Below are positions 44,059 through 50,235 of a stretch of DNA of 64,000 nt, piece after piece. Each line of letters starts with the position of its first letter. Position 1 is the first letter of the stretch. Under the pieces are notes generated by a model. The model saw nothing but the letters and a program-made list of their open reading frames with translations, did no database searches and was not told the origin of the DNA. The position numbers and the translations under genes are program-made. The DNA lies in NCBI RefSeq assembly GCF_000516515.1, contig NZ_KI911784.1:620001-684000 (forward strand). Reading direction: 5' to 3'. The DNA comes from Chloroflexus sp. Y-396-1 (GTDB lineage Bacteria > Chloroflexota > Chloroflexia > Chloroflexales > Chloroflexaceae).

Positions 44059-45087
44059 CTACCCGATCGCCTCACCATTCTCCATCTTAGGTGTTTCGGT
44101 TAGCTCGCGGTAAAGCTGCACGACCGCATCATCCCGTCTACGTCGCGGATTGATCCCGGTGGCCGAGAGATAGCGCTGGTAGGCCCGCTGCATCTCTGTC
44201 GGCAATCCGAGACGTTGCCCGGCGCGCAAAAGCCAGCTTACGACTGCGGCTGCCCTCGGCTCATGCGCCAGGACGCGCTGACAATACTGTAAGCACTGCT
44301 GATCGTCACCACGGGCAAACGCCTCTGCTGCTAACCGTTCCCCGGCAATGACCACTTCACTGAGCAACTGTGCACCACGTTCAGTCGCCCAATCCTGCGC
44401 TCCGACCACACCTTCCATGTACGGCCCATCGTACAGTTCGAGCACGTACTGGTACAACGAAAGCGCAACGTGGATACCCTGCTCGTGAGCCGTTCTGGTT
44501 GCCAGATCGAACGTTCGCTCCAGGATGTCGGCATCGCTCTGGTAGAGATCGGGATTCAGCGCACAACGTTGCCGGTCGGTGTAGAGGAGATTCGTTGCTA
44601 ATTCCTCTCCGCAAAGCTGTTGCAGAAGTTGACGCAACGCGGTGAGGGTACGGGCAAAACTGCTCGAGCTGGCTGTACCTCCCCAAATCGCCTCGGCGAT
44701 CTCGCTCCGTGTTGCTCCCTCGGCGCCACAATGCACCAGGTAGGCAAAGATACCTTGCACCTTTCTGCCACCGGCCCGACCACCCTCGCTCTGCCCCCAT
44801 TCGTCTGCCTTGATCTGCCGACTGTCGATAAAGACCTGAAAGTCGCCCAGGCAACGCACGTAAACGCCGCGAAACGGACGAAGTTCAACCGATAGACCAC
44901 TAATTTCACCGATTGTGATCAACGCTGTCCGCGCCTGTTCGGCTAGTGCAGGATCATCGAGCAAGCGCCGCAGATAGGTCAATGCACGTTTACCGTAATG
45001 GGTAAGCAGAATTGTCGTCGCATGTTGACGTACCGCTGGATCGCTGTGATTTAGCAAGGGCAAGTAGAGAATGACCGGATGAGACAT
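44059..45087 (-). CDS. HEAT/winged-helix/BTAD regulator-like protein
   Basis: This 342-residue protein has an N-terminal HEAT-like helical pair (residues 8-62). A winged-helix domain like that of SARP regulators follows (VYVRCLGDFQVFIDSR..KVQGIFAYLVHCGAEGATRSEIAEAIWG.. ARTLTALRQLLQ). The C-terminal bacterial transcriptional activator (BTAD) TPR domain (about 185-325) has ALSLYQYVLELYDGPYMEGV and EAFARGDDQQCLQYCQRVLAHEPRA. SARP/BTAD proteins activate transcription, often near their own gene. The start lies 5 bp after the stop of the pseudo-helicase gene, so the two form an operon. Confidence 0.82.
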   Translation of the reverse strand: MSHPVILYLPLLNHSDPAVRQHATTILLTHYGKRALTYLRRLLDDPALAEQARTALITIGEISGLSVELRPFRGVYVRCLGDFQVFIDSRQIKADEWGQSEGGRAGGRKVQGIFAYLVHCGAEGATRSEIAEAIWGGTASSSSFARTLTALRQLLQQLCGEELATNLLYTDRQRCALNPDLYQSDADILERTFDLATRTAHEQGIHVALSLYQYVLELYDGPYMEGVVGAQDWATERGAQLLSEVVIAGERLAAEAFARGDDQQCLQYCQRVLAHEPRAAAVVSWLLRAGQRLGLPTEMQRAYQRYLSATGINPRRRRDDAVVQLYRELTETPKMENGEAIG

Positions 45088-45092
45088 ATTCT

Positions 45093-47696
45093 TTACTCAC
45101 TTACTTCTTCATTATCCAACGCTAACCGACGAACGACATTAATCGAGGGATCAATCTGGAGTTCGCCATGCTCATCAAACTCAACCAACAGGATTTCACG
45201 ACCTTCACTCATCATACTCGCCCGCACCCGACCGGCGCCGTAGGGGAGGCAGATGATGCGATCACCCGGCTGAAAGCGAGATTCTCCAGTTGCTACCTGG
45301 GGTGGCCGTGTCAGACGGTCTGGCGATGACGCCGGAGTATGCGCCCGCCGCTGCCGGAGACGGGCCAGAATTGCTTCGGGGTCAGGAAGAGGTTCTGGTG
45401 ATGGGGTAGAGGATGGTGGCTCTGGTGGGGCTGGGGATCCCTGACGCTCAGGTGGAAGTTGACGACTATTTCGCCTGGTAGAGCGATAATAGCGGTCGGG
45501 CTGAAGTTCCAATGGTTGCTTGTTCGATGGTGGCTGTTCAGACGGTGGTTCGGGCGGGGTAGATGTTTGCGCTGGTGGAGTTGGTATCGGCGCTGATGGC
45601 TCAACCGCACGCACAGTCGTCTCAGGTCGTGGTCTACTGGTCGAAGATACCACCGGCATCGCTACTGCGACATCAGTTTCACCTCCCAGGACAGCCAGTA
45701 ACCAATCCATATCGGTACGTGCCAAGACTTCAAATAATGGATCACTGCGCTGATCAAGTGCTACATCGTAAGCCAGAGGTAAGATTGCTTCGATCTGATC
45801 GTACAACCATTCAGCCAGCCCATTTCCATTCGGTTGGGAATCAATGAAATAAAGACGCTGCGTTTCCGGATCGTAAGCAGGTACACAATCCTCCAACCGC
45901 GCCAGCGTCGTTAATGCGATGGCCGCTGCACAAGACCAGCCAATCTGTTGACCGACAACCTGGAGCGGACGAGAGAGATGCACCCACACTGCCGGACTGC
46001 GCCACTGCTGCGTTAGTGGCGCCGGTAGCGTGCGCTCTTGCGCCGGACTACGCCCGATCTGTTCACGGTAGGCATAGGTCTGCTCTTCAACCAAAACTCG
46101 CCCCCAGCTCAGTTTCAGCCCACGTCCGGCGCCGGTGCGCCGCAATTCACGTTGCGCCCACTCTTCAAGAATCTGCACCTGACAGCGACGGAGGGGAAGA
46201 CTGCGCCTCCCATCTTGACCGGTCAACTGCAGGGTTCCCTGCTCCTCATCGAGACTTATCACTTGCAACCCACCACGTAATGGTGGCAAAGCTGCCATTG
46301 GGTGTGCCCAACGATTGGCAAGTGATGGATCGACCGTTCCGTACTGCTGACCCTGAGCATCGAGCAACTTGAGCGGCTCCATCCCGGCTGCGTACAATTC
46401 GAGCGGAATGTACGGATCGCTCTGCGTAGTGGGTAACCAGACGGGTGGCGTATCAGGCAGACGACAAAGGGAACCTTGGGCGGTGAGCCGGTCTACGATT
46501 GGTTCGAGTTGCCACTGCCGAATTTCATCTTCGCGTAGCGGTTGTTCGCTGGCTGCACATACCAGATGTAGCGCGACAACAAACGGATTGATCGTTACTG
46601 TCGGCCAGACCGGTGGCCGTAAGAGCGGCCAGGTTGTCAGATCGGTCACCGCCAGCCGCTGCAGAGCTGGTTCCGCCATCCCACGCCCCAGCAGTAAAAT
46701 CACCAGAGCGGCGCCGCTATTCAGTGCTGCCTGCAAGGTTGCAGCTCCTACATCAGCGCCGGTTACAATCTGAACATGCGCCGGTAATGGTTGGACCCCC
46801 ACACTGATCCGCTCCTGCAAGAACATCGGGCGCAGGATACCGACTTCAAATGGCGTTGTTAGCAGATGAACGCTGGCGCCAGCATTGAGGAACGCTTCGG
46901 TCAACGTTGCAAGGTCGCGTTGGCGCTCGCCACTGCTCTGCCAGAGTGCTAGCGTCGTCGGTGAACGTGGCAAATCCTCGGCTGCGCTCAGCCGCCATTC
47001 ACGGCCACTGAGCAACCGAAGGGCAGTTTCTGCACCTGCAACCGGTACCAGACTTCCACCCAACAATAGGGGGTGAGGGGTAAGTCGGGCAGCTCGTAAG
47101 AGGGTCATCATCAGATGACCGGCTGCGATCCCATGGTACACATGGAGATCAGCGACTGCGATCAAGTGTAATTGCTGCCAGAAGAAGCGCCAGGCGCGGT
47201 CGTGAAAGCGTAGCAGATGGCTATGCAATTCGGGCAGCGTAGTAATGACCAGCCGTGCGGTCGGTGCCAGCCGCCGTCGGTCGCCACCGGTTGCAGCAAT
47301 GGTTATCACCGGACGACAATGTTCAACCATTGCCATCGCTTCGCGTTCGTGGAGAAGTGCCTGAGCAGGATCGGAGACAACGAGTAATGCAGTAGCCGAC
47401 GGTTCATTGCGTAAGAAATCGAGCATCAGGAGATGCAAACTGGCGCGACTCAGCATCCCACTTCCTGTAATCGCAAACGGCGCTCTCCGGCGCAGTGCAG
47501 CCAGAGCAATTGATTGGGCCTGGAAGAAAGAAGTACCGATAACGCGCACCCATGCTTCCTGTAATGCCTGATCTACCGCCAGATGGCTGATGCGCACACC
47601 AACACTAGCCGGAAATGCCTGCAAGGCGATAAGCGGCGACGGCGAGCGGCCAGTATGCGAAGCCAGTTTGCGCAGAATGTCGATCAGGTCATTCAT
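45093..47696 (-). CDS. MrfA/YprA-like pseudo-helicase with Tudor-like tail
   Basis: 867 residues from the ATG at 47696, which lies 7 nt after a -10 box (possible leaderless mRNA). The order of parts matches MrfA/YprA-type SF2 helicases, but the catalytic motifs are lost. Motif I reads TGSGMLS instead of TGSGKS (about 77-83). Motif II reads VADLH instead of IDEAH (181-185). The SAT motif is absent. The MZB/DUF1998-like half (HPMAALPPLRGG.. near 457, IDSQPNGNGLAEWLY near 620) lacks the four zinc cysteines. A Pro/Ser-rich linker (about 680-790) leads to a PcrA-tail-like domain, RFQPGDRIICLPYGAGRV. It pairs with the BTAD gene. Confidence 0.65.
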   Translation of the reverse strand: MNDLIDILRKLASHTGRSPSPLIALQAFPASVGVRISHLAVDQALQEAWVRVIGTSFFQAQSIALAALRRRAPFAITGSGMLSRASLHLLMLDFLRNEPSATALLVVSDPAQALLHEREAMAMVEHCRPVITIAATGGDRRRLAPTARLVITTLPELHSHLLRFHDRAWRFFWQQLHLIAVADLHVYHGIAAGHLMMTLLRAARLTPHPLLLGGSLVPVAGAETALRLLSGREWRLSAAEDLPRSPTTLALWQSSGERQRDLATLTEAFLNAGASVHLLTTPFEVGILRPMFLQERISVGVQPLPAHVQIVTGADVGAATLQAALNSGAALVILLLGRGMAEPALQRLAVTDLTTWPLLRPPVWPTVTINPFVVALHLVCAASEQPLREDEIRQWQLEPIVDRLTAQGSLCRLPDTPPVWLPTTQSDPYIPLELYAAGMEPLKLLDAQGQQYGTVDPSLANRWAHPMAALPPLRGGLQVISLDEEQGTLQLTGQDGRRSLPLRRCQVQILEEWAQRELRRTGAGRGLKLSWGRVLVEEQTYAYREQIGRSPAQERTLPAPLTQQWRSPAVWVHLSRPLQVVGQQIGWSCAAAIALTTLARLEDCVPAYDPETQRLYFIDSQPNGNGLAEWLYDQIEAILPLAYDVALDQRSDPLFEVLARTDMDWLLAVLGGETDVAVAMPVVSSTSRPRPETTVRAVEPSAPIPTPPAQTSTPPEPPSEQPPSNKQPLELQPDRYYRSTRRNSRQLPPERQGSPAPPEPPSSTPSPEPLPDPEAILARLRQRRAHTPASSPDRLTRPPQVATGESRFQPGDRIICLPYGAGRVRASMMSEGREILLVEFDEHGELQIDPSINVVRRLALDNEEVSE

Positions 47697-47703
47697 AGCT
47701 ATG

Positions 47704-47732
47704 ATCATAACACGAGCGTGCGAATACGTGAA
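47704..47732 (-). promoter_or_regulatory. promoter of the pseudo-helicase/BTAD operon
   Basis: On the minus strand, TTCACG (47727-47732) and TATGAT (47704-47709) are 17 bp apart. The expected transcript start coincides with the A of the ATG at 47696. Confidence 0.5.
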
Positions 47733-47835: not shown

Positions 47836-48150
47836 GAGCCTGATCAACGACCCAGATTTCTCATTGGGCACGCACCATACCCATGCGCCCATTGCGTGAG
47901 GGGTTGCCTACATTCTCTTTCGCGCCAGCCCCACGTTCCCCCTTCCTCTCCCCCGTGGGGAAGAAGAAGGGGGCCAGAGGGAAGGTGAGAGCCGCCAGGC
48001 GTGCACCATAGCACCGGCGCTGAACCCATCGAAACCCTTTTCCATCGCCTAGCGGAGACGCAGATGTTGCCTGCCAGCGTTCCCCTCACCATTCTGGAGA
48101 GGAGATGCCTGACCGAGCCTTATCAAAAGCCCAGGTTTTTGACCATGCTC
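47836..48150. mobile_element. MITE-like element, copy 2
   Basis: A ~315-bp unit, diverged but alignable over its whole length with 3153-3463. The left end GAGCCTGATCAACGACCCAG and the right end (GAGCATGGTCAAAAACC on the minus strand) form an imperfect inverted repeat. The internal palindrome and the CCCTTTTCCATCGC block are kept. A 82-codon frame inside runs through it in the same phase as in copy 1, but its sequence follows the palindrome and is unlikely to be a protein. Confidence 0.6.
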
Positions 48151-48264: not shown

Positions 48265-50235
48265 TTAGCTCGTCAGCCATTGCCACCACAAGCGGGTAAA
48301 TATCCCGCTGAGTTCACGCATACGCTGCCAGCGGAGCTGCACTTTTCGCCAAGGCGACGCAATCTGGTCTTCGAGCTGATCGAGGTGCAGGGCCAGAATG
48401 GTACGAAATAAACGATGCCCGACCGATACATCTGGCGGCACGTGATTGACTGCCCATTCCAGCAGCGCCGCATGCACTGCCCGAGCTGTGGCCAGCGCTT
48501 GCGATTGGCGTTCACGCGATGCACGACGGGCCTGCATCACAGCTACCTCCTGGCGGGCGGCAAAGAAGCGCAACAGCAATACACTAGCCGTCCATTCAGC
48601 CATGTCGGCGCTGAGCGTTGACCGGTCATAAACCACAGCATGCTGCGTATCGGCAAGCGGGTTTTCACCGTTGGTCAGCAGATCAAGCGCGGTATGCAGG
48701 ATTTCCAGCCGCTGCTCGCAGTACGGTGAAGGTGCGTTATAGCCGTCGAGCACATCACGTGGTGGATGGGTCACCGGATCGCGGCGGCGACCGTGCTGTT
48801 GGCGCTGTAGCTCGGCTGGGGTAATGTCGAGCGCCTGCTGCCAGGCTTGTTCGAGCGTCGCGTAAGCTCTGTCAAGAGGGGCCAGCGCACCAGCGGCACG
48901 AACGCTCACATATCGGCTGCGTAATGCTGCCGGATCGTTCTGCGGATTCCAGGCGAGAGAGGCGAAGCTGTGTGGGTTTGGTCCTGGCGTCAGCCAGGGA
49001 CGGTCGCCGGTAAGTAAGGTATAGACACCAGCAAATCCCCACTTAGCGTATGCACGAAGATCGGCAGCAATGGTATTTCCCAAAGGTGGCAGCGCCGATT
49101 TGAACAGAATGCCATCGAGATAGTATTCAAATGCGCTGATTCCTGCCGGAAACGCCTCACGAATGGCTGCAATGCATGCAGCTAGCGGTTGATTAATCGG
49201 GTGTTCAGGATCACCGATACCACTGGCATACGAGCGCATACGTGGTGCAACAAGCGCTTCAACATTGGCGGCTGGTGTGATCTGTTGCGGTGGGAACAGC
49301 GTATCGTGGTAGGCAAGAAAACTGATACGGGCTGAAGAGTTGACGGTTGCTAGCTCTTCAGCCATTCCATTGACTAGTAGTAATAGTTGATCGGCAGGGC
49401 TTAATGTTGCGCAGCGATCACAGGAGCACCAGCCACCATGGAGTCGATCAACTGGCCAGACGTGGTATACGGCAGCATTTGGTTCGGCGTTGAAGAAACT
49501 GCGTGCCCATTTACGTACTATCGCCTGGGTCGTTGGGTTCGTTGGACACGGATTACCATCGGCTACTCGTCGTTGACCGTTAAACCGGAACACGTCCGGT
49601 TGGTCTCGCAGACGTTGGGTGGCGAGAGCATCGGTCAGGTGATGACCACCGATTTCAAGTTGTAATCCGCGTTCCTTAAGCAACGGCCAGAGCTGGCTCC
49701 GTCGCTGCTGCCAAAAGCGTAGCCGACAGGCGCCTAGGGGCATTCCGCTGTCGCCAATCGTGTGAATGAATATCGTGTTGAGACGCGCCCGTGCTGCCCA
49801 CTCAATCCATGCTTCAGCCTGGGATAAGAATATGTCGTGGCCGATAACAAGACCACGACGAGTAAATGCCGGCTGTTCGGCAACGGTTGCTTCAGGCAAC
49901 GGGATATGTGCGTAATGTGGAAACTGTTCGTTCTCGACACCAGGTCCAACCCAACACCAGCCCAATGCCTCTAACAAGCTGTAAACTGCATACAGCAAGC
50001 CAGTTGGCCCTTCGCCGATCAGAATCAAACCGTGCTCGTCGGCCATACGTACAAAGCCATCACCTGCCGCGCCATGGCGGAGACTGATGCGCTGTGTATG
50101 GGCCTGTCCGACGATTGGTAAGGTAGGCCCACCCATCCGCTGTATTGCCTGACGTAATTCTTGGGCGGCGAACTGAGCAGTTAGATGTTCGCTGTGTAGC
50201 TCGATGACCCAGTTTGCCGAAAGGATATGCTTCAT
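48265..50235 (-). CDS. DUF4838-type (alpha-glucuronidase-like) protein
   Basis: This 656-residue protein begins with a GH20b/alpha-glucuronidase-type N-terminal domain (TAQFAAQELRQAIQRMGG..LILIGEGPTGLLYAVYSLLEALGWCWVGPG). A TIM-barrel-like region of the DUF4838 kind follows, with FTRRGLVIGHDIFLSQAEAWIEWAARARLNTIFIH, CSCDRCATL and FEYYLDGILFKSALPPL. The last ~180 residues are helical. There is no signal peptide, so it seems cytoplasmic, unusual for a secreted glycosidase. The glycan substrate is unknown. It stands upstream of alpha-glucan phosphorylase but on the opposite strand. Confidence 0.7.
   Translation of the reverse strand: MKHILSANWVIELHSEHLTAQFAAQELRQAIQRMGGPTLPIVGQAHTQRISLRHGAAGDGFVRMADEHGLILIGEGPTGLLYAVYSLLEALGWCWVGPGVENEQFPHYAHIPLPEATVAEQPAFTRRGLVIGHDIFLSQAEAWIEWAARARLNTIFIHTIGDSGMPLGACRLRFWQQRRSQLWPLLKERGLQLEIGGHHLTDALATQRLRDQPDVFRFNGQRRVADGNPCPTNPTTQAIVRKWARSFFNAEPNAAVYHVWPVDRLHGGWCSCDRCATLSPADQLLLLVNGMAEELATVNSSARISFLAYHDTLFPPQQITPAANVEALVAPRMRSYASGIGDPEHPINQPLAACIAAIREAFPAGISAFEYYLDGILFKSALPPLGNTIAADLRAYAKWGFAGVYTLLTGDRPWLTPGPNPHSFASLAWNPQNDPAALRSRYVSVRAAGALAPLDRAYATLEQAWQQALDITPAELQRQQHGRRRDPVTHPPRDVLDGYNAPSPYCEQRLEILHTALDLLTNGENPLADTQHAVVYDRSTLSADMAEWTASVLLLRFFAARQEVAVMQARRASRERQSQALATARAVHAALLEWAVNHVPPDVSVGHRLFRTILALHLDQLEDQIASPWRKVQLRWQRMRELSGIFTRLWWQWLTS

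What the first reader, a model, noticed from the sequence alone, without database searches (positions are those of the whole stretch)
44059..47732. Catalytically dead MrfA-like helicase in an operon with a HEAT/winged-helix/BTAD protein
Seen: an 867-residue protein keeps the domain order of MrfA/YprA SF2 helicases, including the HPMAALPPLRGG and IDSQPNGNGLAEW landmarks of the DUF1998/MZB half. It has lost the P-loop Lys (TGSGMLS), the DEAH box (VADLH) and all four MZB cysteines, and has gained a PcrA-tail-like Tudor domain. A HEAT-wHTH-BTAD protein starts 5 bp after it, and the leader suggests a leaderless mRNA. Inference: a DNA- or RNA-polymerase-binding scaffold coupled to transcription control, possibly a new repair or regulatory system.
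Basis: partly seen in the sequence, partly recalled or inferred. Interest (0 to 1): 0.72.

Follow-up and report, generated by a model that had tools for sequence, protein, structure and literature searches.

The report
Dead repair helicase with docking tail
Chloroflexus and its relatives carry a protein built like the DNA-repair helicase MrfA that has lost the parts needed to use ATP but kept likely DNA-gripping parts and has a docking tail like that of another repair helicase, which suggests an old motor turned into a tether.

Summary
Window 45093-47696 (minus) encodes an 867-residue protein with the MrfA/YprA helicase fold (AlphaFold pLDDT 82.6; best PDB match MrfA, Z 30.2 over 612 residues). 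Walker A lysine, DEAH box and zinc cysteines are gone, as in the whole family: 0 of 52 rows covering motif I have GK[STA], 0 of 54 a DExH box, 0 of 56 the cysteine cluster, against 9/9, 10/10 and 9/10 canonical controls. The family is one clade, under purifying selection (dN/dS 0.09-0.17), in 76 of 82 genomes of the order and 56 of 56 good ones. A disordered linker leads to a tail domain whose nearest folds are PcrA/UvrD Tudor domains. Conservation is highest in the tail and winged helix, lowest in RecA2. The HEAT-BTAD gene follows 5 bp downstream, but I saw this linkage only in the genus. Best reading, inferred: an ATP-independent DNA-binding tether for UvrB or RNA polymerase. New variant of a known kind (pseudohelicase).

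The parts
45093..47696 (-). dead MrfA-like protein, 867 aa (first in-frame ATG at 47708 would give 871 aa)
46977..47570 (-). RecA1-like domain (residues 43-240), nucleotide-binding motifs lost
   Evidence: model, alignment; domain limits approximate
47448..47468 (-). motif I position: TGSGMLS where canonical relatives have TASGKT/S
47142..47153 (-). motif II position: ADLH where canonical relatives have DExH
46602..46976 (-). shortened RecA2-like domain (residues 241-365), least conserved folded part of the family
46422..46601 (-). winged-helix domain (residues 366-425)
   Evidence: Pfam WHD_HRQ1 E 0.0024, below cut-off
45972..46421 (-). beta-rich middle region (residues 426-575)
   Evidence: model
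45681..45971 (-). MZB/DUF1998-like domain (residues 576-672) without the zinc cysteines; PNGNG loop kept
   Evidence: Pfam MZB E 0.013, below cut-off
45387..45680 (-). Pro-rich linker predicted disordered (residues 673-770)
   Evidence: pLDDT under 50
45342..45380 (-). conserved basic helix (residues 773-785) before the tail domain
45123..45275 (-). PcrA/UvrD-like Tudor domain (residues 808-858), best conserved domain of the family
44059..45087 (-). HEAT + BTAD protein, 342 aa, 5 bp downstream; adjacency seen in the genus only
47704..47732 (-). promoter-like site TTCACG-17-TATGAT; would give a near-leaderless mRNA; not kept in relatives

Best explanation
It is an order-wide, apparently single-copy descendant of an MrfA/YprA SF2 DNA-repair helicase that lost ATP binding and hydrolysis, probably before the families of the order split, and now works as an ATP-independent DNA-binding tether. 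SHOWN by computation: MrfA fold; loss of motif I, the DExH box and the zinc cysteines across the family; one clade; purifying selection; a long disordered linker; a C-terminal PcrA/UvrD-like Tudor domain that is the best-conserved part. INFERRED: the body still holds DNA (motif Ib, winged-helix and MZB-loop residues kept) without translocating, while the Tudor domain on its flexible leash docks on a partner, as it does in PcrA/UvrD. In this organism the partner is most likely UvrB (it carries the exact PcrA-docking motif) or an RNA-polymerase site other than the known one. The result would be recruitment or retention of excision-repair or transcription machinery at particular DNA structures. 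In Chloroflexus it is probably co-expressed with a BTAD regulator.
For: Motif counts 0/52, 0/54 and 0/56 against 9/9, 10/10 and 9/10 in canonical controls. MrfA 6znp is the only significant PDB profile hit (5.5e-45) and the best fold match (Z 30.2, 612 residues, rmsd 6.8, 16% identity). 53 dead rows and 10 canonical rows are separated by a branch with SH-aLRT 100. dN/dS 0.09-0.17. Present in 76 of 82 genomes of the order, 56 of 56 good ones. Conservation in the dead family: Tudor 2.66, basic helix 2.51, winged helix 2.44, MZB 2.34, against RecA1 2.20 and RecA2 2.04; in canonical relatives RecA2 2.99, RecA1 2.95 and MZB 2.91 lead over winged helix 2.63. Residues at 95% or more that canonical enzymes share include L157, H158, L162, W169, R201, R204, N370, A381, A382, E384, G624 and G626. 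Tudor: the first six Foldseek matches are PcrA/UvrD Tudor domains, followed by Mfd, a YabR-MutS2 model, CdnL, another UvrD and CarD; VIA Z 8.0 to 5dma. The tail profile also hits a second ORF in 7 of 8 genomes at E 9e-5 to 0.002; in the four genomes checked (G000, G002, G003, G026) it is the genome's PcrA/UvrD. Own UvrB has LDPLTGEIL, an exact match to the published helicase interaction motif (PMC8318588, passages read).
Against: No partner or DNA binding was tested. Own RpoB has no match to the helicase interaction motif. PcrA's RNAP-binding residues are not all kept: the His of UvrD that I take for PcrA H681 lines up with an invariant Cys (alignment), and K712 appears to be replaced by Leu/Val (my own alignment, partly from recall). 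In G025 the tail profile found no second ORF. The tail model alone has pTM 0.51, and VIA rows of histone-reader Tudor domains follow at Z 7.0. The window tail's only Pfam row is CarD_TRCF_RID (E 0.12), not the PcrA Tudor model. No conserved gene neighbourhood points to repair or transcription. Kept residues in the winged helix and MZB loop may be structural only.
Confidence: 0.42

Rival explanations
1. It is an inactive helicase subunit of a larger helicase/nuclease machine (as inactive helicase modules of some recombination complexes are, recalled), where it guides or separates DNA strands for an active partner.
For: Likely DNA-binding elements kept, ATPase lost. Purifying selection.
Against: No helicase or nuclease was recognised as a conserved neighbour in the 32 loci compared (most neighbours were clustered, not annotated). 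It does not depend on canonical MrfA: full-length canonical matches are absent from the eight Chloroflexus genomes and the six genomes of genus g20, which have the dead one.
Confidence: 0.2
2. It is an RNA-binding or RNA-polymerase-associated transcription factor (CarD/CdnL-like action) and has left DNA repair altogether.
For: The tail also resembles Mfd, CdnL and CarD RNAP-interaction domains. In Chloroflexus it sits with a BTAD regulator.
Against: BTAD linkage seen in the genus only. Known docking motif not found in RpoB. The closest tail relatives by fold are PcrA/UvrD, which also bind UvrB.
Confidence: 0.2
3. It forms a two-gene regulatory pair with the HEAT/BTAD protein, and that pair is the functional unit.
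For: Same strand, 5 bp apart; the BTAD gene lies directly behind the dead helicase or its tail fragment in 7 of 8 Chloroflexus genomes, and in the eighth (G002) fragments of both are on different contigs. BTAD gene under purifying selection (dN/dS about 0.07).
Against: Outside the genus the dead helicase has other neighbours in the loci compared, and BTAD relatives lie elsewhere, e.g. beside a GAF protein in G097.
Confidence: 0.08
4. It is a cryptic ATPase that binds nucleotide in a non-standard way.
For: The fold and a glycine-rich stretch remain at motif I in Chloroflexus.
Against: The former motif positions vary across the family: top residue 0.26-0.56 at the six positions of TASGKT and 0.40-0.74 at the four of DEAH, against 0.92-1.0 at most of them in canonical rows.
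Confidence: 0.04

Closest known systems
MrfA/YprA (DUF1998) SF2 helicase, B. subtilis, PDB 6znp
   Same: Domain order and fold, residues 1-671 aligned to 6-747; motif Ib LH, winged-helix NxxxxxxHLxCAA, MZB PGG/NxG loop (alignment)
   Different: No Walker A Lys, no DEAH, no zinc cysteines, shortened RecA2; long linker and Tudor tail added
PcrA/UvrD C-terminal Tudor domain (5dma, 7egs, 9dqs)
   Same: Fold (Z 8.0, 52 residues, rmsd 1.9), position at the extreme C-terminus after a disordered linker, profile similarity to the genomes' own PcrA tails
   Different: Carried by an SF2 instead of an SF1 body; invariant Cys in place of a His; PcrA K712 apparently not kept; window tail has no PF21196 row
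Mfd RID and CarD/CdnL
   Same: Tudor-like RNAP-interaction fold, weak profile hits
   Different: Weaker fold match than PcrA/UvrD; no translocase activity expected here
Known bacterial pseudohelicases, e.g. Deinococcus radiodurans PriA (PMC4504706, search listing with start of abstract only)
   Same: Helicase fold used without helicase activity
   Different: Different helicase family; no Tudor tail known to me; here the loss spans an order
YprA-family defence helicases (DISARM, Dpd, Druantia, ARMADA; PMC12458937, passages read)
   Same: Same helicase family
   Different: They belong to multigene defence loci, and in ARMADA the helicase's Walker motifs are needed (passage); here no PADLOC hit better than E 0.9

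Membership tests
MrfA/YprA SF2 helicases | MrfA domain order and fold (RecA1-RecA2-WHD-MZB) | tested here: met
MrfA/YprA SF2 helicases | Walker A GKT/S and DExH box | tested here: not met
   0 of 52 and 0 of 54 rows that cover them; controls 9 of 9 and 10 of 10
MrfA/YprA SF2 helicases | four-cysteine zinc site of MZB | tested here: not met
   0 of 56 rows (some are fragments); controls 9 of 10
MrfA/YprA SF2 helicases | motif VI QxxGRxGR | tested here: inconclusive
   a loose pattern occurs somewhere in 6 of 56 dead rows and in 10 of 10 controls; its position was not checked
MrfA/YprA SF2 helicases | ATP-dependent 3'-5' helicase activity | not testable with these tools
   needs biochemistry
PcrA/UvrD Tudor domain | Tudor fold nearest to PcrA/UvrD | tested here: met
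   Z 8.0 is near the level of common arrangements, but PcrA/UvrD rows lead both lists
PcrA/UvrD Tudor domain | match to Pfam PF21196 | tested here: not met
   no row for the window's tail at E up to 10; 1 of 18 tails has one, E 0.0083, bits not shown
PcrA/UvrD Tudor domain | binding to RNAP or UvrB | not testable with these tools
   partner motif found in own UvrB, not in RpoB
BTAD regulators (partner gene) | BTAD domain | tested here: met
   PF03704 29.4 bits, cut-off 22.1
Known anti-phage defence systems | PADLOC model match | tested here: not met
   best E 0.9

The most novel reading that the evidence does not exclude
An order-specific, ATP-independent coupling factor: a repair helicase turned into a passive DNA clamp that, through a PcrA-like Tudor tail, links excision repair (UvrB) or transcription to DNA throughout the Chloroflexales, beside or in place of motor-driven coupling factors such as Mfd and PcrA.
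Probability: 0.25. Interest if true: 0.72.

Novelty: new variant of a known kind. Interest (0 to 1): 0.52.

Why it matters
It is a clear natural case of a motor enzyme apparently turned scaffold, fixed over a bacterial order, with its docking domain recognisable and a concrete candidate partner. It gives a testable way to learn what the MrfA body does apart from unwinding, and it shows a PcrA/UvrD-like docking tail carried by a different helicase superfamily. The window protein matches no Pfam or NCBIfam model above cut-off, so annotation by those libraries would miss it.

Tried and rejected
Idea that the BTAD gene is the conserved partner: rejected outside the genus. Idea of a defence island: no PADLOC or PHROGs support. 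Idea of a decaying pseudogene: rejected by dN/dS and order-wide presence. Idea of a partner of canonical MrfA: rejected because the dead protein occurs without it. Three phylum hits outside the order looked like possible family members (G188, G256, G196) but show DExH boxes and zinc cysteines, and a GKT/S box (in G256 on a separate ORF). Leaderless promoter: possible in the window, not kept in relatives. A cluster of ORFs, of which only the L054 copy was checked (alpha/beta hydrolase), lies divergently upstream in several Chloroflexaceae loci; I judged it unspecific. Literature: searches found no description of an inactive YprA/MrfA family in Chloroflexota; the library holds open papers only, and of the hits I read passages, not whole papers. 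The MrfA structure paper was not held, so MrfA's DNA contacts could not be checked residue by residue. The limit to one order rests on 400 genomes drawn from the phylum and one pattern scan of genome contigs (77 stretches matched the pattern, 31 confirmed; titles that name a group below phylum name members of this order, several name only Chloroflexota, Chloroflexi or bacterium).
Full report
What is there. The minus strand of the window carries two ORFs in tandem: 45093-47708 (871 aa from the first ATG, 867 aa from the ATG at 47696) and 44059-45087 (342 aa), 5 bp apart. The later start is favoured because several relatives begin MxDLID at that point. The first protein has only weak Pfam hits, to the HRQ1 winged helix (E 0.0024) and MZB (E 0.013), both below cut-off, and a partial match to the DEAH-helicase model TIGR03817 (E 9.5e-23, 80 bits against a cut-off of 874).

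Fold. A model from 29 sequences has mean pLDDT 82.6 and pTM 0.75; residues 673-770 are predicted disordered. Foldseek and VIA put MrfA (6znp, 6znq, 6zns) first, with Z 30.2 over 612 residues, rmsd 6.8 and 16% identity for 6znp; the next protein, Lhr, has Z 23.0. The high rmsd means that the domains are not placed exactly as in the crystal. In a profile search of all PDB sequences MrfA/YprA is the only significant hit (E 5.5e-45); between its two matched stretches the profile has about 50 positions (247-298) where MrfA has about 100 residues (252-352), in line with a shortened second motor domain.

Loss of the motor. In one search, 34 relatives were aligned with five normal paralogues. One search widened this to 56 non-redundant dead rows (some are fragments): 52 cover motif I and none has GK[STA]; 54 cover motif II and none has a DExH-type box; none of 56 has the CxC...CxxC cluster. 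Of the 12 low-scoring rows two are tail fragments; the other 10 are canonical relatives, of which 9 of 9 covering motif I have GKT/S, 10 of 10 have the DExH box and 9 of 10 have the zinc cysteines. A loose motif VI pattern occurs somewhere in 6 of 56 dead rows, which I treat as inconclusive.

Age and constraint. The profile finds the family in 76 of 82 genomes of the order and in 56 of 56 genomes at least 90% complete and at most 5% contaminated. Two of the six misses (G016, G023) have a tail fragment. In the phylum sample of 400 genomes, scores over 700 bits occur only inside the order; the best match elsewhere has 150 bits, and the three such hits that I inspected are ordinary helicases. On a tree of 63 rows the 53 dead rows and 10 canonical rows are separated with SH-aLRT 100; inside the dead clade the rows group largely by taxonomic family, except L030, which has a very long branch, and several forks are weak. 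Pairwise dN/dS in Chloroflexus is 0.09-0.17 (pairs with the window have near-saturated synonymous sites, the three close pairs give 0.09-0.13). Full-length canonical MrfA is patchy in the order and was not found in the eight Chloroflexus genomes or the six g20 genomes.

Where selection acts now. Mean relative entropy per column in the dead family is highest in the tail domain (2.66), then the basic helix before it (2.51), the winged helix (2.44) and MZB (2.34); RecA1 has 2.20, the middle region 2.18, the N-terminal extension 2.14 and RecA2 2.04. In the canonical rows RecA2 (2.99), RecA1 (2.95) and MZB (2.91) lead over the winged helix (2.63) and the middle region (2.56) (only 10 canonical rows, so compare the order of domains, not the values). 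Residues kept at 95% or more in the dead family and shared by canonical enzymes lie at motif Ib (L157, H158, L162, W169), R201, R204, the winged helix (N370, A381, A382, E384) and the MZB loop (G624, G626).

The tail. Alignment of 18 tails shows 16 invariant columns. A separate model (46 of 109 residues at pLDDT 90 or more, pTM 0.51) has as its first six Foldseek matches PcrA/UvrD Tudor domains, then Mfd, a YabR-MutS2 model, CdnL, another UvrD and CarD; only the first reaches E under 0.001. VIA gives 5dma Z 8.0, 7egs 7.8, 9dqs 7.6 and 7egt 7.2, with histone-reader Tudor domains from 7.0 down, so a Tudor-like fold is well predicted and PcrA/UvrD kinship likely but not proved. Sequence adds to this: in 8 genomes searched with the tail profile, 7 have a further hit at E 9e-5 to 0.002 in an ORF of 747-889 aa, and G025 has none. 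In G000 that ORF overlaps a PF21196 match over cut-off; in G002, G003 and G026 it is 48-78% identical to that PcrA; G001, G004 and G005 were not checked. In PcrA this tail binds RNA polymerase and UvrB through a TGE loop (PMC8318588 and PMC5397179, passages read). By the published pattern the window genome's UvrB has the motif (LDPLTGEIL) and its RpoB does not.

The partner gene. The 342-aa protein has BTAD (29.4 bits, cut-off 22.1) and HEAT_2 below cut-off. It lies directly behind the dead helicase or its tail fragment in 7 of 8 Chloroflexus genomes; in the eighth, fragments of both are on different contigs. Outside the genus no BTAD relative was found beside the dead helicase in the loci compared; five genomes of genus g6 have a relative on another contig, which in G097 lies beside a GAF protein. 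Contig breaks could hide a linkage in some drafts; in the one-contig genome G030 the two genes are about 2.4 Mb apart.

Conclusion. The unit that matters is not the operon but the order-wide dead MrfA with its PcrA-like tail. The most likely role is an ATP-independent DNA-binding tether for UvrB or RNA polymerase; that step is inference, while the identity of the protein itself is near certain.

Noticed in passing
L002 1229-1722; L027 4348-4637: The linker of relatives is stretched by tandem repeats (15 to 243 bp units); several draft assemblies break inside or next to it (e.g. G001, G004, G013, G021).
   Followed up: partly
L026 4814-5896 and L028 5668-7269: In two genomes of family f2 the Tudor tail lies in a separate ORF from the body: a frameshift, a split gene or an assembly error.
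   Followed up: no
G261:C1:171601-173283 and 198048-198599: Body and tail of the dead helicase lie about 25 kb apart on one contig, in the wrong order for one gene: rearrangement or misassembly.
   Followed up: no
window 48265-50235: Upstream gene on the same strand is a DUF4838 protein with a weak GH67 N-terminal hit, separated by about 560 bp.
   Followed up: no
L092 5050-5206: A canonical MrfA-like helicase of another Chloroflexota lineage also ends in a small SH3/Tudor-looking sequence (by eye), so tail gain may be older than motor loss.
   Followed up: no
L030 3885-6503 (G027): The small-genome lineage g21 has a very divergent copy (branch 2.25) without the motor motifs.
   Followed up: partly
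window 47900-48000: Intergenic stretch with a C-rich, G-rich pattern that by eye resembles a dispersed genomic repeat; not searched.
   Followed up: no
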